Shown piece by piece: positions 5,807 through 27,479 of a stretch of 41,110 nt of DNA (position 1 is its first letter; each line of letters begins with the position of its first letter). The notes beneath the pieces are model-generated. The model saw nothing but the letters and a program-made list of their open reading frames with translations. It ran no database searches and was not told where the DNA came from. The stretch spans positions 1-41,110 of the forward strand of contig JAGIBE010000177.1 of NCBI GenBank assembly GCA_017744495.1, in the 5' to 3' direction. This DNA comes from Caulobacter sp. (lineage in GTDB: Bacteria; Pseudomonadota; Alphaproteobacteria; Caulobacterales; Caulobacteraceae). The translations under genes were made by a program, and so were the position numbers.

Positions 5807-5841
5807 TACCATATTATGAGAGAGAGTGCTACAAAATGAAA
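5807..5841. promoter_or_regulatory. Tandem IclR-type operator pair before iclR (sites 5807-5821 and 5827-5841)
   Basis: TACCAT-ATT-ATGAGA at 5807 and TGCTAC-AAA-ATGAAA at 5827 are 15-bp imperfect palindromes whose starts are exactly 20 bp apart. The same two-site arrangement occurs before four other transcription units in the window. The second site covers the ATG at 5836. Its position in the rhmD-iclR divergent region suggests autoregulation plus control of both arms. Binding is inferred. Confidence 0.65.
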
Positions 5842-6666
5842 CGTGACGCGTCAAGGGGAGCCGAGCCGGTGGCCAAGGAAGACAGCGCAGGCGGCAAGGC
5901 GCCCAGCGGCAGCCAGACGCTCTTCCGGGGCCTGGACCTTCTGGACGTGGTCGCCGACTCCGGCACCATCGGCCTACCCGCCCTGGCCCAGCGCCTGGGC
6001 CTGACCCGCAGCACGACTCACCGCCTGGCCACGGCCCTGGTCGAGCGTCGCCTGCTCTCCCAGACCCCGCGCGAAGGCTACAGCCTGGGCTCCAAACTTC
6101 TCGAGCTGGGATACCTGGCCGGCCAGCAGATGGACCTGCCGCGCGTAGCCCGCCCGCATCTGGAAAAGCTGTGGGACGAGCTGGAGGACACGGTCCACCT
6201 GGGCGTCCTGGAAGGCGACCGAGCCCACTACCTGGACAAGCTGACCGGTCGCCGGCGGATCAACATCTCCTCACGCGTCGGCGACCGCCAGCCGATCCGC
6301 TCGACGGGCCTGGGCAAGGCTCTGGTGCTGGACGACACCGAGGAACGCTGGCGCGAGCTCTATCGCAAGGAAGGCCCGCGTTCGGCGCACGGCCCCGACG
6401 AGGAGCAGTGGATCGCCTGGATGCGCGACTACGCCAAGAAGGGCGTGGCCTTCGACTTGGAGGAGAACGAGGATCGCATCCGCTGCGTCGCCGCGCCGAT
6501 CCGCGGCCCCAGCGGCGCGATCGTCGCGGCCATCAGTGTCTCGGGCGCGGCCCAGTACATGGACGACGCCCGCATGAAGGACCTGACCACGACGGTGCGC
6601 GACTGCGCCAACGCCATCGGCGTCGAGTTGGGTTGGAACGAGAAGAGGACGCCCGCCAAGCGGTAG
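5836..6666 (+). CDS. IclR-family transcriptional regulator, likely regulator of the rhamnose/rhamnogalacturonan genes
   Basis: A 276-residue IclR protein. The winged helix lies at about residues 27-90 (SGSQTLFRGLDLLD, LPALAQRLGLTRSTTHRLATAL, YSLGSKLLELG). The effector domain runs to about 262 (ARPHLEKLWDELEDTVHLGVLEGDRA summarises its start; SRVGDRQPIRSTGLGKALVL; IRCVAAPIRGPSGAIVAAISVSG). It is divergent from rhmD and followed by the rhamnose dehydrogenase. Start choice matters: ATG 5836 has little Shine-Dalgarno and lies inside a putative operator, whereas GTG 5869 has AGGGGAG about 8 bp upstream and removes only 11 non-conserved residues. Regulon membership is inferred from the five shared operator pairs. 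Confidence 0.92.
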   Translation: MKRDASRGAEPVAKEDSAGGKAPSGSQTLFRGLDLLDVVADSGTIGLPALAQRLGLTRSTTHRLATALVERRLLSQTPREGYSLGSKLLELGYLAGQQMDLPRVARPHLEKLWDELEDTVHLGVLEGDRAHYLDKLTGRRRINISSRVGDRQPIRSTGLGKALVLDDTEERWRELYRKEGPRSAHGPDEEQWIAWMRDYAKKGVAFDLEENEDRIRCVAAPIRGPSGAIVAAISVSGAAQYMDDARMKDLTTTVRDCANAIGVELGWNEKRTPAKR

Positions 6667-6713
6667 AGCGTGACAGCCGAAAGTGGATGCCGGTTTCGGC
6701 GCCCGTCACGCTC
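6666..6713. repeat. 48-bp palindromic intergenic element
   Basis: GAGCGTGAC (6666-6674) pairs perfectly with GTCACGCTC (6705-6713). An inner CCGAAA/TTTCGG stem encloses GTGGATGCCGG. It begins at the last base of the iclR stop codon. The sequence resembles, from memory, the dispersed palindromes with a GAAA-GTGG...CCGG-TTTC core common between genes in alphaproteobacteria. It has no T-run, so it is not a clear terminator, but it could stabilise or attenuate mRNA between iclR and the dehydrogenase gene. Confidence 0.7.
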
Positions 6714-6751
6714 CAACTCTGAAGAGCGTCCTGAGTATTAGTGGAGGAACG

Positions 6752-7513
6752 ATGCTTCTGAAGGACAAGGTGGTGCTGGTGACCGGCGCCTCGCAGGGGA
6801 TCGGCAAGGCCGCGGCCATCGGCTGCGCCCGGCACGGCGCGGACGTGGCGATCAACTACCATTCCGACGAGGCCGGCGCGGCCGACGCCGTGCGCGAGAT
6901 CCAGGCCCTGGGCCGCCGCGCCATCGCCGTGAAGGGCGACGTGGCCGAGGTCGAGACCGCCGCATCGTTCGTCCAGGCCGCGGTCGACGCCTTCGGCCGG
7001 GTCGACGTCTTCGTCAACAACGCCGGCATCTGCCCGTTCCACGCCTTCCTCGACATGCCGCCCGAAGTGATGGAGCGGACGATGAAGGTGAACCTCTTCG
7101 GCGCCTACTACATGGTCCAGGCGGCGGCCAACCAGATGGTCAAGCAGGGCGACGGCGGCGCGATCATCGCCGTCAGCTCGATCAGCGCCCTGGTCGGCGG
7201 CGGCATGCAGACCCACTACACCCCGACCAAGGCCGGCGTGCACAGCCTGATGCAGTCGACGGCCATCGCCCTGGGCAAGTACGGCATCCGCTGCAACTCG
7301 GTGCTGCCGGGCACCATCGAGACGGCGATCAACAAGGAAGACCTGGCCGACGTCGCCAAGCGCGACTACATGGCCGGCCGCATCCCGCTGGGACGCCTGG
7401 GCGAACCCGACGACCTGGCTGGGCCGATCGTCTTTCTGGCTTCGGACTTGGCCAAGTACGTCACCGGCGCGGCCCTGCTGGTCGACGGCGGCGCCTTCGT
7501 GAACCTGCAATAG
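6752..7513 (+). CDS. L-rhamnose 1-dehydrogenase (SDR family)
   Basis: A 253-residue short-chain dehydrogenase with TGASQGIG at residues 11-18, [28 protein letters not shown] and the catalytic HYTPTKAG (YxxxK). These stretches and the C-terminus ([15 protein letters not shown]) match the characterised Azotobacter-type L-rhamnose dehydrogenase as remembered. It oxidises L-rhamnose with NAD(P)+ to L-rhamnono-lactone, the first step of the pathway. ATG 6752 follows GTGGAGGAACG. It lies downstream of iclR across the palindrome at 6666 and 5 bp before lldD, so it probably forms one operon with them. The cofactor preference cannot be told from sequence here. Confidence 0.92.
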
Positions 7514-7518
7514 CGGCC

Positions 7519-8661
7519 ATGATCGTCTCGTCCACGACGGACTTCCGAGAAGCGGCGCGGCGCAAGCTGCCGCGCTTCCTGTTCGACTACATCGACGGCG
7601 GCGCCTATGCCGAGCGGACCCTGGCTCGCAACGTCTCGGACTTGGCCGACCTTTCCCTGCGCCAGCGGGTGCTGAAGGACGTCTCGCGGGTCGACACCTC
7701 CACCACCCTGTTCGGCCACTATCAGGCCCTGCCGGTGGCGCTGGCCCCCGTGGGCCTGACGGGCATGTACGCGCGGCGCGGCGAGTGTCAGGCGGCCAAG
7801 GCCGCGGCCGCCAAGGGCGTGCCGTTCTGCCTGTCGACGGTTTCGGTCTGCGACCTCAAGGAAGTCTCCCAGGCCAGCCCGTCGCCGATCTGGTTCCAGC
7901 TCTACGTGCTGCGCGACCGGGCCTTCATGCGCGACCTGCTGGCCCGCGCCGCCGACGCCGGGGCCACGGCCCTGGTGTTCACCGTCGACATGCCCGTGCC
8001 CGGGGCCCGCTATCGCGACGCCCATTCCGGCATGAGCGGTCCCAACGCCGCCGCGCGGCGGCTGGCGCAGGCGATGTTCAAGCCGCAATGGGCCTGGGAC
8101 GTCGGGGTCATGGGTCGTCCCCACACCCTGGGCAACGTCGCCCCGGTGCTCGGCGCCAATTCGGGCCTGGAGGACTTCATGGGCTGGCTGGGGGCCAATT
8201 TCGATCCCTCGATCCAGTGGAAGGACCTCGACTGGATCCGCGACCAGTGGAAGGGGCCGCTGATCATCAAGGGCGTGCTCGATCCCGAGGACGCTAAGGC
8301 CGCCGCCGACATCGGGGCCGACGGCATCGTGGTCTCCAACCATGGCGGCCGTCAGCTGGACGGCGTGCTGTCCTCGGCCCGCGCCCTGCCGGCCATAGCC
8401 GACGCCGTGGGCGACCGCCTGACCGTGCTGGCCGACAGCGGCGTGCGCTCGGGCCTGGACGTGGTGCGAATGCTGGCCCTGGGGGCCAAGGGCGTCCTCT
8501 TGGGCCGGGCCTTCGTCTACGCCCTGGCCGCGCGCGGCGGGCCGGGCGTGACCCAACTGCTGGACCTGATCGAGAAGGAGATGCGCGTGGCCATGGCCCT
8601 GACCGGGGTCAACACACTGGCCGAGATCGACAGGTCTATCCTGGCCAAGGTGGATTCATGA
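7519..8661 (+). CDS. lldD: L-lactate dehydrogenase (FMN-dependent, quinone-linked)
   Basis: A 380-residue member of the FMN-dependent alpha-hydroxy-acid dehydrogenase family, very close to E. coli LldD across its length ([74 protein letters not shown] with the catalytic His, [10 protein letters not shown]). It oxidises L-lactate to pyruvate at the membrane. Within this locus it consumes the L-lactate released by the FAH-family hydrolase. The gene starts 5 bp after the rhamnose dehydrogenase and overlaps the following esterase by 4 bp (ATGA). Confidence 0.95.
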
Positions 8662-9503
8662 GCGTGCTCGCCCTCGTCGCGGCCCTGGCGCTGCAGGCCG
8701 CGCCTGTTACGGCGCCAGGCGCGCCCAAGCCCGACCTCACGGACGTGCCAGCGCCGCCAGCCATGGCCGCCCCGGTCGCGCGCATCCTGATCGCCAGCGA
8801 TTCCACCGCCGCCAACTACGGCGCCTCGGCCTATCCGCAGATGGGCTGGGGCATGGTGCTGAAGTGCTCGCTGGACCCGCGTGTCGAGGTTGTGAACCTG
8901 GCGCGCGGCGGTCGCTCGACCAAGACCTTCATCGAGGAAGGCCTGTGGGACGGTCTGCTGGCCAAGCTCCAGCCGGGCGACACCGTGCTGATCCAGTTCG
9001 GCCACAACGACGCCGACCGGGTGAAGATCATCCGCTTCACCGATCCCAAGGGCGCCTACACGGCCAACCTGACCCGCTTCGTGGCCGACGTGCGGGCCAA
9101 GGGCGGCCAGCCGGTCCTGATGACCCCGATCGCCAAGCATGTGTTCGAAGGCGACAAGGTCCAGGAGACCCACGGCCCCTACGCAGAGGCCGTCCGCGCC
9201 GTGGCCAAGGCCACGAAGACCCCGCTGATCGACCTGGACGCTGACATGATGGGCGCCCAGCAGGCGATGGGCGAGCCGGCCTCGCGCCGCCTCTACCTGA
9301 TCTACACGCCCGAGGACCACGTCGCCCGCTATCCGACGGGCAACAGCGACACCACCCATATCAACGAGGGCGGAGCGCGCCTGGCCGCGTCGCTGGTGGC
9401 GGGACGTCTGGCGTTTCTGGGCCTGCCGGTCTCGACCTATGTGCACCCCGCCTCGACCGGCGTGCAGCCGATCCTCGGCGCGCCAAGATGCCCCGGGCGG
9501 TAG
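8658..9503 (+). CDS. SGNH hydrolase, probable rhamnogalacturonan acetylesterase (CE12)
   Basis: A 281-residue SGNH esterase. The blocks are [11 protein letters not shown] (nucleophile Ser), [11 protein letters not shown] (oxyanion Gly), IQFGHNDAD (Asn) and [10 protein letters not shown] (Asp/His), the CE12 arrangement. The N-terminus ([19 protein letters not shown]) looks like a signal peptide, so it likely acts in the periplasm or outside. It would remove acetyl groups from the galacturonate of rhamnogalacturonan I. Its ATG overlaps the lldD stop (ATGA, 8658-8661), which couples a polysaccharide esterase to lactate oxidation. A second CE12 gene lies at 22869. Confidence 0.87.
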
Positions 9504-9624: not shown

Positions 9625-9659
9625 TTCCACAATGTGGAACATTGTCCGATATAATGAGA
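9625..9659. promoter_or_regulatory. Tandem IclR-type operator pair and TATAAT before the GH2 gene (9625-9639, 9645-9659)
   Basis: TTCCAC-AAT-GTGGAA (9625) is a perfect palindrome apart from its 3-bp centre. TCCGAT-ATA-ATGAGA (9645) starts 20 bp later. A TATAAT at 9650-9655 lies inside the second site, so a bound protein would block the -10 region. This places the GH2 gene in the proposed IclR regulon. Confidence 0.68.
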
Positions 9660-9662
9660 ATA

Positions 9663-9686
9663 CTTGACAGCGGGACGGATGTCAAG
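9663..9686. other. Leader inverted repeat before GH2
   Basis: CTTGACA (9663-9669) and TGTCAAG (9680-9686) are perfect 7-bp inverted copies around a 10-bp spacer, just downstream of the putative -10. It may form a hairpin at the 5' end of the mRNA or be a protein site. Nothing else supports a function. Confidence 0.35.
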
Positions 9687-9738
9687 CCACAGGTGGAAAA
9701 AGGCCCGAAGTGGTCTGGCCAATTTGGAGGGCGCCACC

Positions 9739-12700
9739 ATGCGACAGGTTGCGGGATCGATCCTGGGCGGACTCTGCACCGCCCTCTGCGTGGCGGGCGC
9801 CGCGACGGCCGCTCCGCGTGTCGACCGGTTCTTCAATGACGGCTGGCGCATGACGACCGGCGAGATCGCCGGCGCCGAACAGCCCGACCTCGACGACGCC
9901 GCCTGGAAGTCCGTCACCCTTCCGCGCGCCTTCAACGAGGACCAGGCCTTCCGCGACGCCAGCACCGACCAGAAGGAAGCGATCATCTGGTATCGCAAGC
10001 GCTTTGTTTTACCCGCCGACGCGGTCCCGGGCGGCAAGGCGTTCCTGGCCTTCGAGGGCGTGCGTCAGGCGGCCGACGTCTTCGTCAACGGCGTGCGCGT
10101 GGGCGGCCACGAGAACGGCGTCTCGGGCTTCGCCGTCGACGCCACCGCCCAGCTGAAGCCCGCGCCCTTCGTCAATGTCATCGCCGTACGGGTCGACAAC
10201 AGCTGGACCTACAAGGAGCGCGCCACCGGCAGCGCCTTCCAGTGGAACAATAAGAACTTCAACGCCAACTACGGCGGGGTGAACCAGGCCGTGCGCCTGC
10301 ACCTGACCGGCGGCCTGCACCAGACCCTGCCGTTCTATTCCAGCCTGGGCACGACGGGCGTTTACATCTGGGCTGACCGGTTCGACATCCGAAAGGGCGC
10401 GGCGACCGTCCATGCCGAGTCCCAGGTGCGTAACGACAGCAGCCGCCCGCGCACCTTCAGCTATCGGGTCAGCCTGCGCGACGTGGACGGCAAGCCGGCC
10501 GGGAGGTTCGAGGGCCCGACGATCACCCTGGCGCCCGGCGAAGCCCGCACGGTCTCGGCACAGGCGGCGCTGAAGGGCCTGCACTTCTGGAGCTGGGGCT
10601 ACGGCTATCTCTACACGGTCAGCACCGAGCTGGTGGAAAACGGGGCGGCCGTCGATGCGGTCTCAACCCGCACCGGCTTCCGGAAGACCGAGTTCCGGAA
10701 CGGCATGATCTGGCTCAACGACCGGGTCATCCAGGTCCACGGCTACGCCCAGCGCAGCACCAACGAATGGCCCGCCCTGGGCTCGGACGCGCCGGCGTGG
10801 ATGAGCGACTTCTCCAATCGCCTGATGGTCGAGAGCAACGGCAACCTGGTGCGCTGGATGCACGTGACCCCGGCCCGCCAGGACATCGACTCCGCCGACC
10901 GCGTGGGCCTGATGCAAGCCCTGCCGGCGGGCGACGCCGAGAGCGACGTCACCGGCCGCCGCTGGGAGCAGCGCGTCGAGGTCACGCGCGACGCCATGGT
11001 GGCCTTCCGCAACAACCCGTCGGTGATCTTCTACGAGGGCGGCAATGAGAACATCAGCGACGAGCACGTGGCCGAGTTGAAGGCCCTGCGCGACCAGTTC
11101 GACCCGCACGGCGGCCGCGCCGTCGGCTCGCGCGAGATGCTGGCCAGCAAGGTCGCCGAGTACGGCGGCGAAATGCTCTACATCAACAAGAGCGCCGGCA
11201 AGCCGGTCTGGGCCATGGAATATTCCCGCGACGAGGGCGCGCGGAAGTTCCAGGATGACTTCACCCCGCCGTTCCACATCGACAGCCCCGACTACAACCG
11301 CAACCAGGACAGCCACGCGGCCGAGGATGTCCGCCGCTGGTTCGACTACTGGCGTGAACGGCCCGGCGGCGGCGATCGCGTCAGCTCCGGCGGTGTGAAC
11401 ATCGGCTTCACCGACAGCAACACCCACTTCCGGGGCGACAACAACTATCGCCGCAGCGGCGAGGTGGACGCCATGCGCCTGCCCAAGGAGGGCTTCTGGG
11501 CCCACCAGGTGATGTGGGACGGCTGGGTCGATGTCGAGCGTCCGCGCAGCCACATCATCGGCCACTGGAACTACGCGCCGGGCACGGTGAAGGACGTGAT
11601 GGTGGTCTCCAGCGCCGACAGCGTCGAGCTGCTGCTGAACGGCAAGTCGCTGGGCCGGGGCGTGAAGTCGGACGGCTTCCTCTTCACCTTCAAGGACGTG
11701 GCCTGGGCGTCGGGGACGCTGCGGGCGGTCGGCCGCGACGCCAAGGGCAGGGATGTCTCGGTCGCCGAAGTCGCCACCACCGGCCCCGCCGTCGCCCTGC
11801 GCCTGACCCCGCACGTCGGCCCCTCCGGCTGGCGCGCCGACGCCTCGGACATCGCGCTGGTCGACGTCGAGGCCGTGGACGCCCAGGGCCGCCGCGTGCC
11901 GACGGCGCTGGACCTGGTGAAGTTCGACCTGTCGGGCCCAGCCGAGTGGCGCGGCGGCCTCGCCCAGGGCGACTCCACCGGCAAGAAGCCGGCTGCGGTC
12001 ATCGGTCCGGCGGTGAACATTACCAGCCAGGCGGCCGGCAAGGACGCGGTCACCCACTACGAGGGGACCAATCGCGGCGACGACAACTGGATACTGTCGC
12101 GCAGCCTGCCGATCGAGGCCGGGATCAACCGCGTGGCCCTGCGCTCGACCCTGGCGGCCGGCAAGGTCGTCGTCAGCGCCACCGCCGAGGGGCTGAAGCC
12201 CGCCAGCCTGACCCTGGACGTCGCCCCCCCGTCGGCGGAGCCCGCTGTTCTGCCGGTCAATCTGGAGCGCGGCCCGACGCCGACCACGCCGTCCTATGAG
12301 GTCCGGCGCGTGGCCCTGAAGCCCGCCGCCGTGGTGGCCGGCTCCAACCCCGCCGACGTCGCCAAGGCCACGGACGATGACGAGACCACCCACTGGGCCA
12401 GCGACGGCCGGCTGCCCGACGCCTGGCTGGAGCTCCAATACGCCCAGCCCCAGAAGGTGGACGAGGTGGTGCTGAAGCTGATCGGCTGGCGCCTGCGGGC
12501 CTATCCGCTGCGCATCACCCTGGACGGCAGGGTCGTCTACGAAGGCGTGGCGCCCAAGAGCCTGGGCTATGTCACCCTGCCTCTGAAGCCCAGCGCCGCC
12601 GGCCGCAAGCTGCGCATCGCCCTGACCGGTCCCACCGAGGATCGCGACGCCTTCGGCAAGATCGTCGAGATCACCGGCGCCCGGGCGGGCCTGGATACGG

Positions 12701-12768
12701 GGGCGGAGAAGGTCAAGACCGGCGGCGCGCTCGGGCTGATCGAGGCCGAGGTCTATCGGCGGCGGTAG
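9739..12768 (+). CDS. Secreted glycoside hydrolase family 2 protein with C-terminal discoidin-like domain
   Basis: A 1009-residue exported GH2 enzyme (beta-galactosidase/glucuronidase class). ATG 9739 follows GGAGG and begins a signal peptide (MRQVAGSILGGLCTALCVAGAATAA); upstream codons in frame add no signal. Then come the sugar-binding jelly-roll (WYRKRFVLP, FVNGVRVGGHENG), an Ig-like domain and the catalytic barrel. The acid/base is in YEGGNENIS (about residue 435) and the nucleophile probably in WAMEYSRDEG (about 493). Further beta domains follow, and residues about 870-990 resemble an F5/8-type C or CBM32 module (ATDDDETTHWASDGRLPDAW). It is transcribed alone behind its own operator pair and probably trims rhamnogalacturonan side chains. 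Confidence 0.86.
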   Translation: MRQVAGSILGGLCTALCVAGAATAAPRVDRFFNDGWRMTTGEIAGAEQPDLDDAAWKSVTLPRAFNEDQAFRDASTDQKEAIIWYRKRFVLPADAVPGGKAFLAFEGVRQAADVFVNGVRVGGHENGVSGFAVDATAQLKPAPFVNVIAVRVDNSWTYKERATGSAFQWNNKNFNANYGGVNQAVRLHLTGGLHQTLPFYSSLGTTGVYIWADRFDIRKGAATVHAESQVRNDSSRPRTFSYRVSLRDVDGKPAGRFEGPTITLAPGEARTVSAQAALKGLHFWSWGYGYLYTVSTELVENGAAVDAVSTRTGFRKTEFRNGMIWLNDRVIQVHGYAQRSTNEWPALGSDAPAWMSDFSNRLMVESNGNLVRWMHVTPARQDIDSADRVGLMQALPAGDAESDVTGRRWEQRVEVTRDAMVAFRNNPSVIFYEGGNENISDEHVAELKALRDQFDPHGGRAVGSREMLASKVAEYGGEMLYINKSAGKPVWAMEYSRDEGARKFQDDFTPPFHIDSPDYNRNQDSHAAEDVRRWFDYWRERPGGGDRVSSGGVNIGFTDSNTHFRGDNNYRRSGEVDAMRLPKEGFWAHQVMWDGWVDVERPRSHIIGHWNYAPGTVKDVMVVSSADSVELLLNGKSLGRGVKSDGFLFTFKDVAWASGTLRAVGRDAKGRDVSVAEVATTGPAVALRLTPHVGPSGWRADASDIALVDVEAVDAQGRRVPTALDLVKFDLSGPAEWRGGLAQGDSTGKKPAAVIGPAVNITSQAAGKDAVTHYEGTNRGDDNWILSRSLPIEAGINRVALRSTLAAGKVVVSATAEGLKPASLTLDVAPPSAEPAVLPVNLERGPTPTTPSYEVRRVALKPAAVVAGSNPADVAKATDDDETTHWASDGRLPDAWLELQYAQPQKVDEVVLKLIGWRLRAYPLRITLDGRVVYEGVAPKSLGYVTLPLKPSAAGRKLRIALTGPTEDRDAFGKIVEITGARAGLDTGAEKVKTGGALGLIEAEVYRRR

Positions 12769-12790: not shown

Positions 12791-14134
12791 CTACTTCGCC
12801 TTGGCCACCTCGACCGCGTAGACGTGATTAACCCCGTGCATGTTGGAGCGGAACACGATCCACTTGGCGTCGGGCGTGAAGTTGACGTTCGGCTCCAGCC
12901 GGTAGTCGTGGCCTTTCATGTTGACCAGCTTCTCGGTGTCGAGAACGCCTGGCTGGATCAGGGCCTCAGAGCCCGGCGCGTGGATGCCGGCGACGTCCGG
13001 AATGGCGCGCGGGCGCATCAGATAGAGCCATTTGCCGTCGAGGGCGTGGGCGACCATTTCGCTGTCGCCGCCGTCGCCCGCGAACAGCTTGCCGTCCGGC
13101 GAGGTGTTGAAGTGCACCGACCAGGCGTTGCGGTCCAGGTGCAGCCAGGTGCGCTTGCCGGTGGCGATCTCGTAGCCGGCCACCCAGAAGTCCTCGCCGC
13201 GCGGGGTCTGCAGGTCGTACCAGACGGTCTTGCCGTCGGCGCTGAACCACTCGTGCCCGGCGATCTCCATGTTCATGGTCCGGGCGTGGATCTTGACGGG
13301 CACGTCACCGGTCTTGTCGATCCTCACCAGCCACAGGCGGTCCACCTTATGCCAGGGGCCCTCGTGGCAGAACATCAGCAGGCCCGGATCGGTGGGCGAG
13401 AACTGCAGGTGGTTCAGCCAGTCGGTGGCCTGGTGCACGACCTTGCGCTCGCCGGTGGCCGTGTTGATCGTGAAGATCTCCATCGGGATGCGGCTGTCGA
13501 GGCGCGCGTTCAGCTGGACCTCGCGACCCTCGGCGTAGGACAGCTCACGGCCGTCGGCGCTTTTCACGTCGTCGGGGTTCTTGGGCAGGGTGTCGGCCAG
13601 GTTCGGGACGGCCGGCACGTCGGTGCGCACGGCCACGCCGGCCAGCAGGGTCTCGTCGGCGTTGATCGTCTGGATGCCCACGCCCTTGGCCAGCTTGGCG
13701 ATCGCCCGGACCTTCTTGGTGGCCGGATCGACCGCCTCGACCTGGCCCGTGCCGTCCTCGGCCATGCGCTGGTAGTAGACCTGGCCGGTCTTGCGGCCGA
13801 CGAACAGTAGCCGGACCTTGCCCTCGACGACGGGCTTGAGGACGTGGCTCTTCAGGTCGACCACCGAGATCCCGTCCGGCGTGCTGATCGCCAGGAACCG
13901 GCCGTCGGGCGTGTAGCCGTTGTAGTTGAAATAGAGGCTGCCGCTGCCGGGCTTGTCCGACAGGCGGATCACGCGGTGGCCGGTGTCCTTGTCGATCCAT
14001 TCGCGCGGGGCCTCGGGCAGGCCGGGGCGGGGCTCGGTGACCCTGTCTTGGGCCAGGGCAGGAACGAGGGCGGCGGGCGCGGCGGCGGCGAGCACCAGGC
14101 TCAGGGCGGCGGCGCGGAGGAGGGCGGTCTTCAT
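12791..14134 (-). CDS. Exported oligogalacturonate lyase-like protein (PL22 type)
   Basis: A 447-residue protein with a signal peptide (MKTALLRAAALSLVLAAAAPAALVPALA) and a beta-propeller pattern. The stretches LNHLQFSPTDPGLLMFCHEG, PWHKVDRLWLV and AGHEWFSADGKTVWYDLQTP match oligogalacturonate lyase, whose conserved His residues bind Mn2+. Classical PL22 enzymes are cytoplasmic and split short oligogalacturonides; this one is predicted periplasmic. ATG 14134 has GAGG at a good distance; ATG 14140 and GTG 14143 in the same frame are less well placed. The gene follows the PL11 lyase by about 10 bp and shares its promoter. An unsaturated rhamnogalacturonan disaccharide is an alternative substrate. 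Confidence 0.8.
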   Translation of the reverse strand: MKTALLRAAALSLVLAAAAPAALVPALAQDRVTEPRPGLPEAPREWIDKDTGHRVIRLSDKPGSGSLYFNYNGYTPDGRFLAISTPDGISVVDLKSHVLKPVVEGKVRLLFVGRKTGQVYYQRMAEDGTGQVEAVDPATKKVRAIAKLAKGVGIQTINADETLLAGVAVRTDVPAVPNLADTLPKNPDDVKSADGRELSYAEGREVQLNARLDSRIPMEIFTINTATGERKVVHQATDWLNHLQFSPTDPGLLMFCHEGPWHKVDRLWLVRIDKTGDVPVKIHARTMNMEIAGHEWFSADGKTVWYDLQTPRGEDFWVAGYEIATGKRTWLHLDRNAWSVHFNTSPDGKLFAGDGGDSEMVAHALDGKWLYLMRPRAIPDVAGIHAPGSEALIQPGVLDTEKLVNMKGHDYRLEPNVNFTPDAKWIVFRSNMHGVNHVYAVEVAKAK

Positions 14135-14144
14135 CGTCATCACC

Positions 14145-16258: not shown

Positions 16259-16312
16259 TCCCACAAATTGCATTGACATCTCAGAATGTGGAACTATTCC
16301 TATTGTATGAGA
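16259..16312. promoter_or_regulatory. Tandem operator pair and -35 box between PL11 and TBDR-1 (16279-16293, 16298-16312)
   Basis: TCTCAG-AAT-GTGGAA at 16279 and TCCTAT-TGT-ATGAGA at 16298 are related 15-mers, here 19 bp apart. The strings AATGTGGAAC and ATGAGAA recur in the same order in the GH2 promoter. A weak third site with a good left half (TCCCAC-AAA-TTGCAT) starts at 16259. A TTGACA at 16273-16278 could be the -35 box for TBDR-1. The 295-bp gap between the two genes holds nothing else that I can name. Confidence 0.62.
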
Positions 16313-20406: not shown

Positions 20407-21923
20407 GGCGCGTCTCCGTCGATAATCAGGCCCGAGACCTCCTCGACGACGATGGACTCCACGCCCGGCGCGGCCGCCAAGTCCAGCCGGTCGAAGCGGG
20501 CGTCGCGCACGGCCTGCAGCAACACAGGCGGGCGCGGATCGGGCGACAGGGTCTCGACGCGCACATTGTCCAGCCTCAGGCCTTCCACATGCCGCGCCCA
20601 CAGGCCGTGCGCCGGCGTCGGGCCGAACATGCTGGGCTCGGGATAAGCGTGGGCCATGTCGTCCGGTCGCCGCTGGGCCCACCTGGCCTCGCCGCCGCCG
20701 GCATAGACCAGGCGCACGTCGCTCAGCGTCACGTCCTGGATCGGATGGCCCTCGAGCCCGGCGATCGTGGCGGCGTAGTCGGGCAGAATGTCCCAGGCGG
20801 TCAGGTTGCTGACCCTGATCCGGCGGATCGCGCCGCGCGTCGTGCCCTCGGGCCCACGCCCCCGGTCGCCCAGCCGCAGGAACAGCGGGGCGGTGGTGAT
20901 CTCGCGCATGACCACGTCGCGGATCGTGACGTCCTCGATCACGCCGCCGTCGACCGTCTCCAGCGCCAGGCCCCGCGAGCGGGTGAAGACACAGTCGCTG
21001 ATCGTGATCTGGCGAAAGCCGCCGTTGGACTCGGTGCCCAGCTTGATGCGGCCGGTGACCCGATCCTGGTCGGGCGCCAGCTGCTGGGTGCGGCCCTGGG
21101 TCCCGTCCAGCAGGGTCCCCAGGTCGAAGCCGCTGACGTGGCAGCGGGTGATCTCCACCCGCTCGGTGGCCCGGACCTCGCCCAGGGCCATGGAGCTCTT
21201 CAGCACGATGGCGTCGTCATTGGGCGTGTTGACCCGGCAGTCGGCGATGGTCACGTCGCGGCAGCAGTCGATGTCCAGCCCGTCGCGGTTGGTGTCGATG
21301 CGCAGGTCGCGGATCGTTAGATGATCGCAACCGGTGGCCAGCACCGCGAAGTGGCCGCCGCGCCAGATCGTGAAGCCCTCCAGGCGGACGCGGCGGGCGT
21401 GCTTCAGGGCGATGGTCTTGTTGCCCTGGCCGGCCATGGCCTCCAGATCCGGAACCAGGATCGCCATCGCCTCGGCCGACAGGTTGGCCATGCTGATCGG
21501 GAACTCGCCTGCCTGCCGCGTCCAGCGTGAGCCGGGGCCCTCACGGGTCATGCCCACGCCGTCGATCAGGCCCGGGCCTACGACAGCCACGTCCTCGACA
21601 TCCTCGCCCCAGATCAGGCTGTTATGCCAATGGCTGTGGCCGAAGTCCTGGTAGAGGTCGAACGGATTGAGCTCGGCCGGATCATAGGCGCCGCCGTGCT
21701 TGGCCGGATCGGCGGCCTCCAGCACGCAGCCTTCGTCGAGGCGCAGGGTGACGCCGCTGAGCAGCCGGATCGAGAACGACAGCCACCGCCCCGCCGGCAG
21801 CACCACTTCGCCGCCGCCCACGGCGTTGGCAACCGCGACGGCGGCGTTGATCTCGTCGGTGACTAGGGTCGCGCCGTCGCCGACCGCCCCGAAGTCGCGG
21901 ACGTCGAACGGCGCGCCGGTCAT
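20403..21923 (-). CDS. GH28-type beta-helix hydrolase (polygalacturonase/rhamnogalacturonan hydrolase family)
   Basis: A 506-residue right-handed beta-helix protein. It opens with the GH28 N-terminus FDVRDFGAVGDGATLVTDEINAA split over residues 6-28. Catalytic blocks are TNRDGLDID, TPNDDAIVLKS and GRIKLGTESNGG, matching the NTD, DD and RIK motifs; the GHG motif is not obvious. It would hydrolyse galacturonan or rhamnogalacturonan from the chain end. No signal peptide is visible, and the start cannot move far because ATG 21923 overlaps the upstream stop (ATGA). It therefore seems cytoplasmic, or exported by another route. Confidence 0.82.
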   Translation of the reverse strand: MTGAPFDVRDFGAVGDGATLVTDEINAAVAVANAVGGGEVVLPAGRWLSFSIRLLSGVTLRLDEGCVLEAADPAKHGGAYDPAELNPFDLYQDFGHSHWHNSLIWGEDVEDVAVVGPGLIDGVGMTREGPGSRWTRQAGEFPISMANLSAEAMAILVPDLEAMAGQGNKTIALKHARRVRLEGFTIWRGGHFAVLATGCDHLTIRDLRIDTNRDGLDIDCCRDVTIADCRVNTPNDDAIVLKSSMALGEVRATERVEITRCHVSGFDLGTLLDGTQGRTQQLAPDQDRVTGRIKLGTESNGGFRQITISDCVFTRSRGLALETVDGGVIEDVTIRDVVMREITTAPLFLRLGDRGRGPEGTTRGAIRRIRVSNLTAWDILPDYAATIAGLEGHPIQDVTLSDVRLVYAGGGEARWAQRRPDDMAHAYPEPSMFGPTPAHGLWARHVEGLRLDNVRVETLSPDPRPPVLLQAVRDARFDRLDLAAAPGVESIVVEEVSGLIIDGDAP

Positions 21924-22879
21924 GCGTAGAGGCCGTGCCGCTTGAGGAAGGCGCTCAGCAGGGCCGGCCAGGGCATGGCGACGCCGCCGGGACCGGTCAG
22001 GCCGAAACCGTGGCCGCCGCTTTCGAAGACATGCAGCTCGCTGGCGATCTTCTGGGCGCGCAGGGCCTGGAACATCATCAGGCTGTTCTCCATCGCCACC
22101 ACCTTGTCGTCGGCCGCGGCGGCGATGAAGGTCGGCGGGGCGTCGGGCGGGATGCCGTGCTCGGCCGAGACCGACAGGCGCTGGGCCTCGGTCGGGCTGT
22201 TGCCCAGCAAGGACTTCAACGAACTGCCGTGAGCGTGCGGGGCGGTCATGGTGACGACCGGGTAGAACAGGCCGGCCGCCGTCGGACGGGTCGACAGCTT
22301 GTCGGCGGCGTCGACGGGGGCGTAGGTCTCGCGGTGGAACTGGGTGGCCAGGCGCGCGGCGACGTGGCCGCCCGCCGAGAAGCCGGTCACGGCGATGCGC
22401 TCAGGGTCCAGACCCCACTTGCCGGCGTTGGCGCGGATCAGGCGGATGGCGCGCTGGGCGTCCTGCAGCGACACGTCCGGCCCCGCCGCCCAGCCGTCCG
22501 CGGGCAGGCGGTAGTCCATGACGAAGGCGGTCACGCCCTGGTCGGCGATCCAGGCGTCGATCGGCCCGCCGTTCTTGCCTACGGCCACGCGGATGTAGCC
22601 GCCGCCCGGGATCATCAGGATCGCCGCCCCATTGGGTTTCGCGGGGCGGCGCATCATCAGCCAGGGCTTGGTGACGTTCAGGAACGCGGTGTCGTTGGGA
22701 TCGCCGCCGGGCTTGCGCAGGATGACCTGCTCGGTGACCGTGACCTTCTCGCCGCCGGGCGGCTTGCCGGGCCACAGGTCCATGACCTCAATGCCCGGAG
22801 GCGTTTGAGCGCGGGCCAGGCTCGGTGCGGCCAGGGCGAGGGCGCCCAGGCCCAGCAGTGCGCGACGATCAGTTTCCAC
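21920..22879 (-). CDS. Exported alpha/beta-hydrolase esterase
   Basis: A 319-residue alpha/beta-hydrolase of the acetyl-xylan/pectin esterase type. The oxyanion motif is MIPGGGY, the nucleophile is in VTGFSAGGHVA and the C-terminal His in ESGGHGFG, with an acid in AAADDKVV. The N-terminus (VETDRRALLGLGALALAAPSLARA) has twin arginines and a hydrophobic stretch, so Tat export is possible. The start is GTG 22879, with GGAGAAG upstream, and it overlaps the preceding CE12 gene by 11 bp. Likely role: removing acetyl or other esters from pectic oligosaccharides, alongside the CE12 enzyme. Confidence 0.8.
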   Translation of the reverse strand: METDRRALLGLGALALAAPSLARAQTPPGIEVMDLWPGKPPGGEKVTVTEQVILRKPGGDPNDTAFLNVTKPWLMMRRPAKPNGAAILMIPGGGYIRVAVGKNGGPIDAWIADQGVTAFVMDYRLPADGWAAGPDVSLQDAQRAIRLIRANAGKWGLDPERIAVTGFSAGGHVAARLATQFHRETYAPVDAADKLSTRPTAAGLFYPVVTMTAPHAHGSSLKSLLGNSPTEAQRLSVSAEHGIPPDAPPTFIAAAADDKVVAMENSLMMFQALRAQKIASELHVFESGGHGFGLTGPGGVAMPWPALLSAFLKRHGLYA

Positions 22880-24140
22880 GGGGCTTCTCCGTGCTGTGGG
22901 CGGCGCTTTCGGCCAGGACGAAGGTGTCGGGCGGAGTCGGCCTGGCTGGGTCGAACGGCGGCAGGCCGTCCAGCAGGTGCGTAGCCAAGTCCGGGACCTG
23001 GGCGCGGATGCCCGAGACCACGCACTCGGCCAGCACATAGGCGCCGTAGTTGTTGTGGTGGGTAGCGTCCTTGCCGCCGTCGCCGAACGCCTTCCAGGCG
23101 TTGTCGGGACCCAGGGCCTCGTAGAAGGCCGCGCTCATGGTCAGGAGGTCGATGACCGGGACGCCGGTCTCGCGGCCGACGGCGCGCACGGCTTCGGGGT
23201 AGTCGCCGTGGGTGTTCACGATCTTGCCGGCGGCGTCGAACTTGCGGCGGTGCATCGAGGTGACCAGAACCGGCTTGGCCCCGCGCCGCCGGGCCTCGCC
23301 GATATAAACCTTAAGGTAGTCGCGATAGGTCGTGGCCGCCTCGGCGTAGGTCTGGGGCCAGCCTACCTTCTGGTCGTTATGGCCGAACTGGATCAGCAGC
23401 CAGTCGCCCGGCTTGACGGTGCTCAGCAGCTTGTCCAGCCGGTGCTCGAACAGGAACGACTTCAGGGTCTCGCCGGACTCCGCGTGGTTGGCCACGGCGA
23501 TGTCGGGCTTGAAGAACCTCGGCAGCATCTGGCCCCAGCTGGCGCCGGGCTCGAAGCGCTGGTCGGTGACGGTGGAGTCGCCGGCCAGATAGACCACCGG
23601 CACGGTGACGGCCTCGATCCGCACACGGCGCGCGGCCGGAGCGGGGCCGCAGAACTCCAGGGTCAGCTTGTCGTCCCAGTCGTACGAACCTTCCTCGCGC
23701 GGATTCAGCAGCACGCGCACGCCGCCGGGAGCGTTGGGCGGCGGGGCGGCGAGGGCGGCGGTGCGGACGTTGACGATGAACGTGGCGGTGGCGGTCTTGC
23801 CGGCCTCGGTGACGATCCGCTCGGCCATCAGGCGGCGGGACTCGGCCTTGACCGTGGTGTCGGACGCGGCCTCGCCGTCCAGCTCCAGCGTCACGCGGTA
23901 ATCGCCCTCGGGCACCGCGACCGAGAACAGGAACGGACCGCCAGCCGGAGAGGGTTCGAAGCCATGGCCGACGGCGGGGTCATAGGCTGCGTCGCGCCTG
24001 ACGCGGACATGGCCGGGCGCGACCGCCTTGTCGTCGCCGAAGTCGAAGGCCCAACTCTGCATCGATTTCACCGGCTCCCCCGCCCAGCCGACGCTCGGCG
24101 CGACGGCCAGGGCGGCGAGGAGGGCGCGTCGGTGCAACAT
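22869..24140 (-). CDS. CE12 rhamnogalacturonan acetylesterase with N-terminal beta-sandwich domain
   Basis: A 423-residue exported esterase, first gene of the leftward operon. ATG 24140 follows AGGAGG (10-bp spacing), and the N-terminus MLHRRALLAALAVAPSVGWA is a signal peptide. Residues about 27-180 form a beta-sandwich (WAFDFGDDKAVAPGHVRV, DYRVTLELDGEAASDTTVKA) like the modules often joined to CE12. The SGNH domain follows: VYLAGDSTVTDQ (Ser), [22 protein letters not shown] (Asn) and KDATHHNNYGA (Asp/His). It probably deacetylates rhamnogalacturonan I. It differs from the single-domain CE12 at 8658, so the two may act on different acetyl positions or chain lengths. Confidence 0.88.
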   Translation of the reverse strand: MLHRRALLAALAVAPSVGWAGEPVKSMQSWAFDFGDDKAVAPGHVRVRRDAAYDPAVGHGFEPSPAGGPFLFSVAVPEGDYRVTLELDGEAASDTTVKAESRRLMAERIVTEAGKTATATFIVNVRTAALAAPPPNAPGGVRVLLNPREEGSYDWDDKLTLEFCGPAPAARRVRIEAVTVPVVYLAGDSTVTDQRFEPGASWGQMLPRFFKPDIAVANHAESGETLKSFLFEHRLDKLLSTVKPGDWLLIQFGHNDQKVGWPQTYAEAATTYRDYLKVYIGEARRRGAKPVLVTSMHRRKFDAAGKIVNTHGDYPEAVRAVGRETGVPVIDLLTMSAAFYEALGPDNAWKAFGDGGKDATHHNNYGAYVLAECVVSGIRAQVPDLATHLLDGLPPFDPARPTPPDTFVLAESAAHSTEKPRGN

Positions 24141-24231
24141 CAAGGCGCGGCCTCCTGTCCGGCATTCGGGCGATCTGCGTCGCGCTGGGTCGATCCTGAA
24201 ACTACCGACCGCCGAACAGTGAAGCAATGGA

Positions 24232-24266
24232 TTTCATATTGCGAGATTTAGTCCCGTAAAATGGAA
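24232..24266. promoter_or_regulatory. Tandem IclR-type operator pair before the CE12 operon (24232-24246, 24252-24266)
   Basis: TTTCAT-ATT-GCGAGA at 24232 and TCCCGT-AAA-ATGGAA at 24252 are 20 bp apart, about 92 bp upstream of the CE12 start at 24140. This means the four-gene operon has its own promoter separate from TBDR-2. Confidence 0.6.
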
Positions 24267-24331: not shown

Positions 24332-27300
24332 TTAGAAGGTATAGGACGCGCCGAAGAAGAACTGGCGGCCCGTGGTGCTGAACACGCGCTGCGAGCGACG
24401 CACCTTGCCGCTCCACTGGTCGGCCTCCTGGTTGGTCAGGTTCAGGGCGTCGAAGGTCAGCTTGAAGTGGTCGGTCAGCTTGTAGGACGCCGAGGCGTCG
24501 ATGTTGGTCGTCGCATAGCTGCCGTTGGCGTCGGGCACTTCCGACTTGAAGGGCAGGGCGGTCAGGTACTCGTCGCGATAGGCCACCGAGACGCGGGCCG
24601 AGAGCTTGCTGTCCTCGTAGTACAGCGTGGCGTTCACCGAGTGCGGCGACACGTTCAGGAACTGGTCGTGGATCTGCGTCGCCGGCGTCGTGGCCGTGCC
24701 GCTCGACAGGTAGTAGAGCACCGAGCTGTCCACATAGGTGTAGTTCAGCATCGTGCCCAGATTGTCGAAGGGCGCGGGCAGGAACTTGAACGGCTGCTGG
24801 TAGTTCAGCTCGATCCCGCGGATGTAGCCGCCCTGGGTATTGCGCGAGCGGGTGATCAGGTACGGCGTCGAAGCGTCCTGGCCGGCCGGCAGCAGGGCCA
24901 GCGGCAGGCCGGTGGCGCCGTAGGGCTCCGTGGTGGCGATGGTCTGGATCGAGCTCTCGATCTCCTTGTCGAAGACGGTCGCCGACAGGATCGCGCCCGC
25001 GGCGGGGTACCATTCCAGGCTGAGGTCGTAGTTCTTGGCGCGATACGGATCCAGGAACGGGTTGCCGATCGTCGCCGTCTGGGCGCCGAAGGTGGTGTTG
25101 ACCGAACCGCCCGGCGTCAGGTTGCCGAAGCTGGGACGGGCCATCACCCGGGCCGCGGCGAAGCGGGCGACCAGGTTCTCGCGCAGATCGAAGGCGACGT
25201 TCAGCGAGGGCAGCCAGTCGCTGTACTTGTTGTTGACCGTGACCTGCGAGGTCAGGGAAGTGTAGCCGGTGGCGTCCAGGTCGGTCTTGACGTAGCGGAC
25301 GCCGACATTGCCGCGCAGGCGATGGCCGCTCAGGACCTCGGTGTCGAAATCGGCCTGCACGTAGGCGGCGGTGTCGGTCTCCTCGACCGCGCGGTTGTTC
25401 CCCAGGGCCGAATTAATGGCCAGGGTGAAGTCGCCATATTTGTTGGCGCAGTTGCAGAGCAGGCCCAGCTTGTCGATGTAGGCCGAGACGTCCGGCACGA
25501 CCCAGCTGGTCACCGAACCGGCCGGCATCTTCAGCTGCTTGCCGAAGCCCGTGATCGTCTCGCTGAGCGGGGCCGAGCCGGGGAAGTCGGCGGCGAACTG
25601 GGCGAAGTTGAACGGGATGGTGCCCGTCGCCGTCACGCCCGTCGGACCGTTGTTGCCATACAGGCGCTGGACCTGCTTGGTCTGGAAGTCGAACGATTTC
25701 AGCGACACGCCGCCCTTGAGGGTGAGGATGTCGTTCAGGCGGAACTTGGCGTTCGCCTCGCCGGTCCACAGCGTGTTGAAAACCGACGCCTTGACGACGC
25801 GGATGTCGGGGGTCAGGCCCGTGCCGGCGTTGGTGAAGGTGACATTGGCCGGGTTGGTGACGTCGTAGCCGTAGTCGATGAAGGGGCGGCGGGCGTCCTG
25901 GCGCGCGTCCCAGACGTAGCCCGGCTTGTTGAAGCCGTCATAGGACATCAGCACGTCCCAGGGCTGCTTGAAGTCCGACCCGGAGTGCCCGAGCTTGGCG
26001 TCGGCGCTGAACCGGTCGTTGAAATCGTGCCTCAGCGTCAGGCCGATCTGGTGCGTCTCGGTGGTGGTGACGCTCTTTTCCTCGATGTGCTTGATGTCGA
26101 CATTGTTGATCTTCATGTAGTCGACCTGGCCGGTCGGCAGCACGTGGACGTCCATGATCTGGGCGTCGACCCGGCCGGCGAACAGCGGGAAGGCCGCCGT
26201 GGCGCCGTTGACGTTACGGTTCAGCGAGGCGTTCGACAGGGCGTAATCGGTGCGGTCCTGGTCGAACTTCGAATAGACCAGGTCCAGGATGACTTCAGTG
26301 CGGTCGCTGGGCCGCCATTGCAGGGCGCCCGTCATGCCCAGGCGCTTCTGGTCCAGCTGGAAACGGCCCAGGCCCGGGTTGCGCGGCAGGAAGACGTTGG
26401 GCTGGTTGATCGCGGCGTAGGCGGTGGGGTCCGACGGCAGGCCCGAGAAGCACTGGCCGGCCGGCCGGTTGCCCGAGCCCGACAGCGGGTTCACGTACGG
26501 GATGGGGGTGTTGACCACCTGGCTGCCGGGCTGGCTGGCGATGTCCACGGCCGTGCCGCAGAAGCCGTTGTTGGCGTCTGAATAGTCGGACTGCGAGGTG
26601 TCGCTGTAGCCTTCCTCCATCTGCTTGCGCGTGTTGTAGGCCAGCGAGAACAGGGCGCCGAACTGGCCGGCTCCGGTGTCCCAGGTGTCGCTGACCAGTC
26701 CCGCGAAGCGCGGCGCGGTGGTCTTGTTGTTGTCGTAGTAGGCGGCCTGGGCCGAGGCGGCGGCGCGGAAGCCCTGCTTGTCGAACGGGCGACCGGTCTG
26801 CAGGTCGACGGTTGCGGCCAGCGAGCCTTCGTCCATCTCGGCCGACTGCGACTTGCTGACGGTGACGCTGTTGAAGAGCTCAGACGCGAAGGTCGAGAAG
26901 TCGAAGCCGCGCGAGCGGTTGATGCCGGCCACCACGCCCAGGGTCGAGCCGGTCGTGGCCGAATAGGCTTCGATGCCGTTCAGGGTGGTGCGCACGAAGT
27001 CGCCCCCCAGGCCGCGCACGGTGATGTTGCGGCCCTCGCCGCCGTCGCGGGTGATCGAGACGCCTGGGATGCGCTGGATCGACTCGGCCAGGTTGGCGTC
27101 CGGGAAGCTGGCCATGTCGTCGGCCTTGATGACGTCGACGATATTGTTGGAGACCCGCTTGGTGTTGATGGCGCTGGTCAGGCTGGCGCGGAAACCGGTG
27201 ACCACCACCTCCTCGACCGTGGTGTCGGCGTTGACCGGAGGCGTCGCCTGCGCGGCGGCCTCTTGGGCGTGGGCCGGGGTGAGCAGGGCGGCCGAGGCGA

Positions 27301-27352
27301 GCGCCGCCAACGAACAGCCCGCGATGAGACGCGTCGCGCGAATGCGTACCAT
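24332..27352 (-). CDS. TonB-dependent outer-membrane receptor 2
   Basis: A 1006-residue TonB-dependent receptor with a signal peptide ending near AHAQ. The TonB box is VEEVVVTGFRASL. The plug includes DMASFPDANLAESIQRIPGV, ITVRGLGGDFVRTTLNG and DEGSLAATVDLQTGRPFD. The barrel ends in GRQFFFGASYTF. ATG 27352 follows GGGAGGAAGTC. It is of the GFRASL-type group common in Caulobacterales and Sphingomonads for plant glycans. It differs from TBDR-1 in its TonB box and plug, so the two are not a recent duplication and may import different rhamnogalacturonan products. The operator pair at 27445 suggests co-regulation with the enzymes. Confidence 0.93.
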   Translation of the reverse strand: MVRIRATRLIAGCSLAALASAALLTPAHAQEAAAQATPPVNADTTVEEVVVTGFRASLTSAINTKRVSNNIVDVIKADDMASFPDANLAESIQRIPGVSITRDGGEGRNITVRGLGGDFVRTTLNGIEAYSATTGSTLGVVAGINRSRGFDFSTFASELFNSVTVSKSQSAEMDEGSLAATVDLQTGRPFDKQGFRAAASAQAAYYDNNKTTAPRFAGLVSDTWDTGAGQFGALFSLAYNTRKQMEEGYSDTSQSDYSDANNGFCGTAVDIASQPGSQVVNTPIPYVNPLSGSGNRPAGQCFSGLPSDPTAYAAINQPNVFLPRNPGLGRFQLDQKRLGMTGALQWRPSDRTEVILDLVYSKFDQDRTDYALSNASLNRNVNGATAAFPLFAGRVDAQIMDVHVLPTGQVDYMKINNVDIKHIEEKSVTTTETHQIGLTLRHDFNDRFSADAKLGHSGSDFKQPWDVLMSYDGFNKPGYVWDARQDARRPFIDYGYDVTNPANVTFTNAGTGLTPDIRVVKASVFNTLWTGEANAKFRLNDILTLKGGVSLKSFDFQTKQVQRLYGNNGPTGVTATGTIPFNFAQFAADFPGSAPLSETITGFGKQLKMPAGSVTSWVVPDVSAYIDKLGLLCNCANKYGDFTLAINSALGNNRAVEETDTAAYVQADFDTEVLSGHRLRGNVGVRYVKTDLDATGYTSLTSQVTVNNKYSDWLPSLNVAFDLRENLVARFAAARVMARPSFGNLTPGGSVNTTFGAQTATIGNPFLDPYRAKNYDLSLEWYPAAGAILSATVFDKEIESSIQTIATTEPYGATGLPLALLPAGQDASTPYLITRSRNTQGGYIRGIELNYQQPFKFLPAPFDNLGTMLNYTYVDSSVLYYLSSGTATTPATQIHDQFLNVSPHSVNATLYYEDSKLSARVSVAYRDEYLTALPFKSEVPDANGSYATTNIDASASYKLTDHFKLTFDALNLTNQEADQWSGKVRRSQRVFSTTGRQFFFGASYTF

Positions 27353-27444
27353 GACTTCCTCCCTGCCGGGCTCACGCCCGTTTCTTGTTCTGGTGAAGCG
27401 ACGCCGTCGGCCTTTTGGGCAGCCGGTCTAGGTTCAGCGTCGTC

Positions 27445-27479
27445 TCCCATAAAATGGGATTAAATCCCATTTGTTGAAA
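27445..27479. promoter_or_regulatory. Tandem IclR-type operator pair between TBDR-2 and the DUF6065-JmjC gene (27445-27459, 27465-27479)
   Basis: TCCCAT-AAA-ATGGGA at 27445 has perfect arms and TCCCAT-TTG-TTGAAA starts 20 bp later. The pair is 93 bp from the TBDR-2 start and about 207 bp from the divergent ATG at 27686. The rest of the 333-bp gap (27353-27444, 27480-27685) shows only the TBDR-2 ribosome site and no other recognisable element. Confidence 0.7.

What the first reader, a model, noticed from the sequence alone, without database searches (positions are those of the whole stretch)
5807..27479. Five promoters share tandem 15-bp palindromes with 20-bp phasing: a candidate IclR rhamnogalacturonan regulon
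Ten sites fit TYCCAT-N3-ATGRGA: 5807, 5827, 9625, 9645, 16279, 16298, 24232, 24252, 27445 and 27465. Each pair starts 20 bp apart (19 in the TBDR-1 promoter), two DNA turns. Two sites have perfect arms (9625, 27445). They precede iclR, GH2, TBDR-1/PL11, the CE12 operon and TBDR-2, and were not noticed elsewhere in the window. IclR proteins are known to bind as dimers of dimers, which fits paired sites. The regulator at 5836 is the only IclR gene here. This links sugar catabolism and polysaccharide breakdown into one unit.
Basis: partly seen in the sequence, partly recalled or inferred. Interest (0 to 1): 0.82.

Follow-up and report, generated by a model that had tools for sequence, protein, structure and literature searches.

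The report
IclR operator pairs controlling rhamnogalacturonan genes
In this Caulobacter one regulator protein very probably controls its own gene, rhamnose use and a set of pectin-degrading enzymes and uptake channels through the same paired DNA sites: a known kind of switch, in a gene set that our searches did not find described.

Summary
In relatives, iclR promoters excluded, 21 site pairs lie 20 bp apart against 0-1 at every other spacing from 15 to 60. The literal consensus is too strict: only 27445 fits exactly. TBDR-1 has a third site, 16259; the pair kept in 12 of 12 relatives is 16259/16279.

A genome-wide model search returns these five promoters plus a weaker sixth beside an exo-rhamnogalacturonan lyase homologue. 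Of 38 congeneric genomes, sites occur in 19 of 22 with this IclR and 0 of 16 without. Of 30 regions fetched around non-iclR sites, 28 border a TonB receptor, carbohydrate enzyme, esterase, RhaT or rhamnose-pathway gene.

Tandem IclR sites 18-22 nt apart are already described (PMC8222616), so this is a new member of a known kind. The iclR start codon lies inside the second operator, in frame in 42 of 42 loci. Repression released by a rhamnose-pathway intermediate is inferred; binding was not tested.

The parts
5807..5841 (.). iclR operator pair: sites 5807-5821 and 5827-5841; the second contains ATG 5836
   Evidence: 21.6 and 18.4 bits; ATG in frame in 42 of 42 loci; footprint 0.951 vs 0.623 in 11 relatives
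9625..9659 (.). GH2 operator pair: 9625-9639 and 9645-9659
   Evidence: 19.3 and 15.5 bits; genome search 22 bits, E 9.5e-4; footprint not convincing
16259..16312 (.). PL11/TBDR-1 divergent promoter, three sites: 16259-16273 and 16279-16293 (conserved 20-bp pair, TTGACA at 16273-16278 between them), 16298-16312 (extra, 19 bp)
   Evidence: 8.3, 17.9 and 18.1 bits; pair in 12 of 12 relatives, third site in 3 of 12, TTGACA in 11 of 12
24232..24266 (.). Operator pair of the CE12-type esterase operon: 24232-24246 and 24252-24266
   Evidence: 17.0 and 15.9 bits; best-conserved 35-nt stretch of its promoter, 6 relatives
27445..27479 (.). TBDR-2 operator pair: 27445-27459 and 27465-27479
   Evidence: 21.4 and 17.4 bits; pair also before the 95% identical TBDR-2 of a close relative, L153:5523
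5836..6666 (+). IclR-family regulator, the proposed binder
   Evidence: Pfam HTH_IclR 45.3 and IclR_C 116.6 bits, both over cut-off
6683..9503 (+). Genes after iclR: L-rhamnose 1-dehydrogenase LRA1 (6683-7513), L-lactate dehydrogenase LldD (7519-8661), GDSL esterase (8658-9503)
   Evidence: NCBIfam equivalog LRA1 462.6 (cut-off 400), LldD 645.7 (550); Lipase_GDSL_2
9664..12768 (+). GH2 family glycosidase; ATG 9679 is a likelier start than TTG 9664
   Evidence: Pfam GH2 domains; start by eye
12791..16130 (-). PL22-like (12791-14143) and PL11 rhamnogalacturonan lyase (14145-16130)
   Evidence: Pectate_lyase22 58.7 bits, RGL11_C 786.3 bits
16426..19566 (+). TBDR-1; start ATG 16426 chosen for the AGAGGGAGGG stretch before it
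   Evidence: TonB-Xanth-Caul 579.9 bits on ORF 15904-19566; in-frame starts
20403..24227 (-). GH28 rhamnogalacturonidase (20403-21923), BD-FAE esterase (21920-23038), GDSL/CE12-type esterase (22869-24227, start uncertain)
   Evidence: NF049898 636.6 bits, cut-off 500; Pfam
24332..27352 (-). TBDR-2
   Evidence: TonB-Xanth-Caul 678.7 bits
1475..5643 (-). Divergent L-rhamnose operon: L-rhamnonate dehydratase (4423-5643), LRA6 hydrolase (3534-4397), LRA5-like dehydrogenase (in 2770-3849), lactonase-like amidohydrolase (1840-2757), rhaM domain near 1475-1790
   Evidence: Equivalogs: dehydratase 773.5 (cut-off 393), hydrolase 509.7 (500); Pfam

Best explanation
The sites are paired operators of the IclR-family regulator at 5836: two 15-bp palindromes with centres 20 bp (two helical turns) apart, so that two dimers can sit on one face of the DNA. 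[quoted passage not shown] Shown by computation: sites, spacing, conservation, co-occurrence with this IclR, kind of neighbouring genes. Inferred: that this protein binds them; that it represses by blocking RNA polymerase (sites cover the iclR start codon and straddle a TTGACA at TBDR-1); that a rhamnose-pathway intermediate, most likely 2-keto-3-deoxy-L-rhamnonate, releases it.
For: iclR-trained matrix ranks the ten sites first; spacing 20 only, reversed matrix gives 0 pairs at 20 against 172 (overlapping loci); genome-wide model search finds the five promoters plus one; 19 of 22 against 0 of 16 genomes (hypergeometric about 4e-8 by hand, not corrected for ancestry); 28 of 30 fetched regions border fitting genes; iclR pair in 42 of 52 loci, start codon in operator in 42 of 42 kept loci; half-site and spacing agree with IclR group 1 tandem sites (PMC8222616).
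Against: No binding or expression data. Several second sites are weak palindromes (5827: 2 of 6 arm positions). The GH2 footprint is not better than its surroundings (0.846 vs 0.766, rank 23 of 166). Three IclR-positive genomes (G138, G150, G176) have no model match, all with a diverged IclR (62-63%). The divergent rhamnose operon has no site of its own in the window. The sixth place is weak in the model search (E 0.2). The 28 of 30 include orthologues of each other.
Confidence: 0.88

Rival explanations
1. This IclR binds the sites but acts as an activator or dual regulator, repressing iclR and activating distant promoters such as TBDR-1 and GH2.
For: IclR proteins can be activators (PbaR is called one in a reference title seen). 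If TBDR-1 starts at ATG 16426, its sites lie 114 nt or more upstream, so the geometry relative to the transcription start is unknown.
Against: At TBDR-1 the pair straddles a TTGACA kept in 11 of 12 relatives; at iclR the second site covers the start codon; both suit occlusion.
Confidence: 0.25
2. Another protein (an IclR paralogue or an unrelated regulator) binds the sites, and the IclR at 5836 is only one of its targets.
For: Relatives carry up to seven IclR matches (G194), and some unlinked sites lie near a paralogue (L140, L146).
Against: Only one other IclR_C protein, weak, was found in this genome; sites follow presence of this IclR; the pair sits at this iclR in 42 of 52 loci.
Confidence: 0.07
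3. The sites are chance palindromes or promoter-like AT-rich stretches read as operators.
For: The literal consensus alone is only modestly enriched (13 vs 4.8), and intergenic stretches here are AT-rich against a 68% GC genome.
Against: Independent matrix, exact 20-bp spacing, shuffles, reversed matrix; no match in 16 IclR-negative congeneric genomes.
Confidence: 0.01

Closest known systems
IclR-family group 1 motifs with tandem sites (Suvorova and Gelfand 2021, PMC8222616; abstract, first part of Results and passages seen)
   Same: Half-site fits GKTYCRYW3-4RYGRAMC in its core (TYCRY-W3-RYGRA); tandem centres 18-22 nt apart, reported for 94 orthologous groups; iclR site centres at -22 and -2 match its reported peaks at -22 and -3 to +1. 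It names COG3254 and COG3618 as frequently associated in IclR regulogs; COG3254 as RhaM-type is recalled, so parts of a rhamnose-like gene set may already be in its tables.
   Different: No rhamnose, pectin regulon of Caulobacter or Sphingomonadaceae is named in the main text ('rhamn' and 'caulobacter' 0 occurrences); its supplement could not be read here.
KdgR of gamma-proteobacteria (IclR family; pectin regulon)
   Same: IclR-family regulator of pectin use (Table 1 of PMC8222616); the window protein matches the KdgR model at 114 bits.
   Different: Far below the KdgR equivalog cut-off of 275; KdgR motif RWWGAAACGNCGTTTCAKKA differs; rhamnogalacturonan and rhamnose genes here.
RhaR/RhaS/RhaQ-type bacterial rhamnose regulons (Rodionova et al. 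2013, PMC3870299; passages seen)
   Same: Local regulators of L-rhamnose catabolism, reconstructed by comparative genomics.
   Different: AraC, DeoR and LacI families; 'iclr' occurs 0 times in the main text.
RhaR of Aspergillus niger (PMC5674754; abstract and outline seen)
   Same: One regulator for the non-phosphorylated rhamnose pathway and for rhamnose release; inducer likely 2-keto-3-deoxy-L-rhamnonate.
   Different: A fungal factor; a functional parallel, no homology claimed.

Membership tests
IclR family of transcription factors | HTH_IclR and IclR_C domains | tested here: met
   45.3 and 116.6 bits, cut-offs 22 and 24; nearest solved chains are IclR-family regulators, e.g. 5w1e, 1mkm, TtgV 2xrn
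IclR group 1 tandem operators (PMC8222616) | Core TYCRY-W3-RYGRA half-sites as a palindrome | tested here: met
   Trained consensus TCTCATAATATGAGA, compared by eye with the published consensus
IclR group 1 tandem operators (PMC8222616) | Tandem sites with centres 18-22 nt apart | tested here: met
   21 pairs at 20, 0-1 at each other spacing 15-60; window pairs 20, 20, 20 (and 19), 20, 20
IclR group 1 tandem operators (PMC8222616) | Regulator binds both sites cooperatively | not testable with these tools
   Needs gel shift or footprint
KdgR | Score over the NCBIfam KdgR equivalog cut-off | tested here: not met
   114 bits against 275
BhcR | Score over the NCBIfam BhcR equivalog cut-off | tested here: not met
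   127.9 bits against 350
Non-phosphorylated L-rhamnose pathway ending in the LRA6 hydrolase | LRA1 dehydrogenase, rhamnonate dehydratase and LRA6 hydrolase encoded together | tested here: met
   462.6 (cut-off 400), 773.5 (393), 509.7 (500) bits; LRA2 and LRA5 by domain only

The most novel reading that the evidence does not exclude
A rhamnose/rhamnogalacturonan regulon shared by Caulobacter, Asticcacaulis and sphingomonads in which the regulator's own start codon is part of its second operator, so that repressor and ribosome compete for one stretch; it senses 2-keto-3-deoxy-L-rhamnonate, as the unrelated fungal RhaR is thought to; and its operators mark unknown enzymes, such as a ~750-aa family without clear Pfam or NCBIfam match beside four of the fetched sites.
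Probability: 0.35. Interest if true: 0.6.

Novelty: new member of a known kind. Interest (0 to 1): 0.5.

Why it matters
It gives a regulator, an operator code and a testable inducer for rhamnogalacturonan use in bacteria for which our searches found no such regulon. The operator works as a genome-wide tag: in relatives it leads to unlinked receptors, lyases, galactosidases, a galactanase and rhamnose transporters, and to uncharacterised proteins that become candidate rhamnogalacturonan enzymes.

Tried and rejected
The literal pattern was a weak chance test; an altered form genome-wide gave 88 forward and 83 reverse matches at up to 2 mismatches against 42 and 45 for the pattern read backwards, too loose, so I went over to matrices. 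Model R1, from iclR sites only, found two of the five window promoters at E<=1 and was replaced by R2, which also learned non-iclR sites of relatives; the independent test of the window's other sites therefore rests on the iclR-only matrix, not on R2. Rows dropped: of 49 loci L006-L054, 44 passed the training cut; L031 and L038 were then left out as poor, leaving 42 loci, 27 distinct sequences. TBDR-1 was translated in a wrong frame in the scripts (seen), so their TBDR1 labels and percentages are unreliable; corrected.

Considered and not chosen: a downstream iclR start (GTG 5869 after AAGGGGAG), because the operator ATG is in frame with linkers of varied length in 42 of 42 loci. A leaderless iclR message was considered and left open: a purine stretch GAGAGAGAG (5818-5826) before ATG 5836 could serve as ribosome-binding site.

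The 30 regions were picked by eye from places listed (one is the sixth place of this genome, one the TBDR-2 promoter of a close relative); other listed places, and matches that one search did not list, were not examined. Six of the 30 are GH2 and four GH115 orthologues of each other.

Full report
What is there. The window is contig C177 of a genome of 4.30 Mb, 290 contigs, 85% complete. Its IclR is 98% identical to that of Caulobacter sp. UNC358MFTsu5.1. A divergent operon holds L-rhamnonate dehydratase and the LRA6 hydrolase (equivalogs over cut-off), an LRA5-like dehydrogenase, a lactonase-like amidohydrolase and a rhaM domain. Then come iclR, LRA1, LldD and a GDSL esterase; GH2, PL22-like and PL11; a TonB receptor; GH28 rhamnogalacturonidase with BD-FAE and GDSL esterases; and a second TonB receptor.

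Is the pattern real? The literal consensus describes it poorly (1 of 10 exact). I therefore trained a matrix elsewhere: of 52 loci with a relative of this IclR, the 35-bp element beside iclR was kept from 42 (27 distinct), and its two sites were pooled in both orientations. In the window this matrix ranks the ten sites first (15.5-21.6 bits, next 11.7). For the iclR pair itself the test is not independent, since close relatives have the same letters; for the other eight it is. Shuffles give 0.08 sites >=15 bits on average. In 979,380 bases of relatives, iclR promoters left out, 21 pairs lie 20 bp apart, 0 or 1 at any other spacing from 15 to 60; many of the 21 are orthologous. The reversed matrix gives 0 pairs at 20 against 172 over all loci held then, which overlap each other.

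TBDR-1/PL11 has three sites. The pair 16259/16279 occurs in 12 of 12 relatives' stretches, the 19-bp pair with 16298 in 3 of 12.

Whole genome. Model R2 (39 paired sites of relatives in both orientations, none from the window) gave 11 strand matches at E<=10: both strands of the five window promoters and one strand of C133:18526-18560 (E 0.2). With the iclR-trained matrix that sixth place is a 20-bp pair of 30.9 bits between a GDSL esterase (minus) and a PcRGLX homologue (plus, 609.9 bits). That PcRGLX is an exo-rhamnogalacturonan lyase of family PL26 is recalled.

Link to the regulator. Of 38 congeneric genomes, 19 of the 22 with an IclR match at E<=1e-40 have R2 matches at E<=0.3; 0 of the 16 without do. 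Many training rows come from the 22, none from the 16. The three exceptions have the most diverged IclR (62-63%, others 80% or more); in the two whose loci I hold (L082, L084) a diverged pair still sits at the same iclR position (26.0 and 28.6 bits). The contrast is not corrected for ancestry. In this genome one other IclR_C protein was found, at 30.5 bits.

Regulon content. In 28 of 30 regions fetched around non-iclR sites a bordering gene is a TonB receptor, a carbohydrate enzyme, an esterase, RhaT or a rhamnose-pathway gene: GH2, GH28, GH53, GH88/DUF4861, GH115, pectic acid lyase, PL11, PcRGLX, RhaT, an 88%-identical LRA5, and receptors; GH106 lies one gene further in L132. The two others border a ~750-aa unknown protein beside an efflux-type transporter (L133) and a GH43-like protein below its cut-off (L139). 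Receptors are common (72 in this genome), so a receptor alone is weak evidence; I ran no matched control on random promoters.

Rhamnose operon. In the window no further site >=5 bits lies between the dehydratase gene and the iclR pair. In 15 of 37 loci (L019-L055), mostly Sphingomonas, Sphingobium and Asticcacaulis, an extra single site of >=14 bits lies in that gap. Control of the catabolic operon is thus visible there and only inferred here.

Anatomy and mechanism. The iclR site centres lie 22 and 2 nt before ATG 5836; PMC8222616 reports -22 as the commonest position and a peak at -3 to +1. The ATG lies in the right arm of site 2 and is in frame and open into the IclR match in 42 of 42 kept loci, with 0 to 32 codons before the first aligned residue. 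I take it as the true start. At TBDR-1 the pair straddles TTGACA, present in 11 of 12 relatives. Both suit a repressor that blocks polymerase, but promoters were not mapped. The effector is inferred from the gene company, from KdgR answering a keto-deoxy sugar acid (recalled), and from the likely inducer of fungal RhaR, 2-keto-3-deoxy-L-rhamnonate (PMC5674754 abstract).

Footprints. Operator against flank identity: iclR 0.951 vs 0.623 (11 relatives), CE12-type 0.881 vs 0.468 (6), TBDR1/PL11 0.897 vs 0.678 (10), GH2 0.846 vs 0.766 (5; rank 23 of 166 windows, not convincing). TBDR-2 was not footprinted.

Known or new? Tandem IclR palindromes 18-22 nt apart are described for 94 orthologous groups and the half-site fits the group 1 core (PMC8222616: abstract, first part of Results, passages). 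That paper also names COG3254 and COG3618 as often associated in IclR regulogs, so part of such a gene set may already be in its supplement, which I could not read. Nine searches of an open-licence library did not show this regulon. Rodionova et al. 2013 (PMC3870299, passages) list AraC, DeoR and LacI rhamnose regulators and no IclR.

Verdict. Observation confirmed with corrections; interpretation supported; new member of a known kind. Not surprising in kind, but well supported for a sequence-only prediction and directly testable.

Noticed in passing
L125:5054-7417, L132:970-3216, L133:2686-4929, L142:2634-4895 (relative at L140:8882-11659): A ~750-aa protein family (82-89% identical among the four, 64-65% to L140) directly beside four operator pairs; no NCBIfam match, and in Pfam only a sub-threshold GH65 hint for the L132 member (E 0.034). 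Candidate new rhamnogalacturonan enzyme.
   Followed up: partly
G000:C133:18526-18560 (L152:5027-5061): Sixth paired site of this genome, between a GDSL esterase and a PcRGLX (exo-rhamnogalacturonan lyase-like) gene, with a 669-aa ORF of no Pfam match further downstream.
   Followed up: yes
L010:11662-12387: In Caulobacter sp. Root655 a second IclR gene (52% identical to the window's) sits between LRA1 and LldD.
   Followed up: no
L140, L146: In two relatives a RhaT gene with a paired site upstream lies next to another IclR paralogue (47-48% identical) and a BD-FAE-like esterase: a possible second rhamnose locus.
   Followed up: no
L151:3307-5111: A paired site lies between a TonB receptor and a divergent tryptophan-halogenase-like gene; the link is unexplained.
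   Followed up: no
L023: A record titled Bacillus sp. 2B10 carries a Sphingomonas-type rhamnose/iclR locus; the label or the assembly looks wrong.
   Followed up: no
29332-29348: Weak single site (11.7 bits) without a partner, best of the rest of the window.
   Followed up: no
27686-29293: Gene joining a DUF6065 domain and a cupin_8/JmjC-like domain beside the TBDR-2 promoter; relation to the regulon unknown.
   Followed up: no
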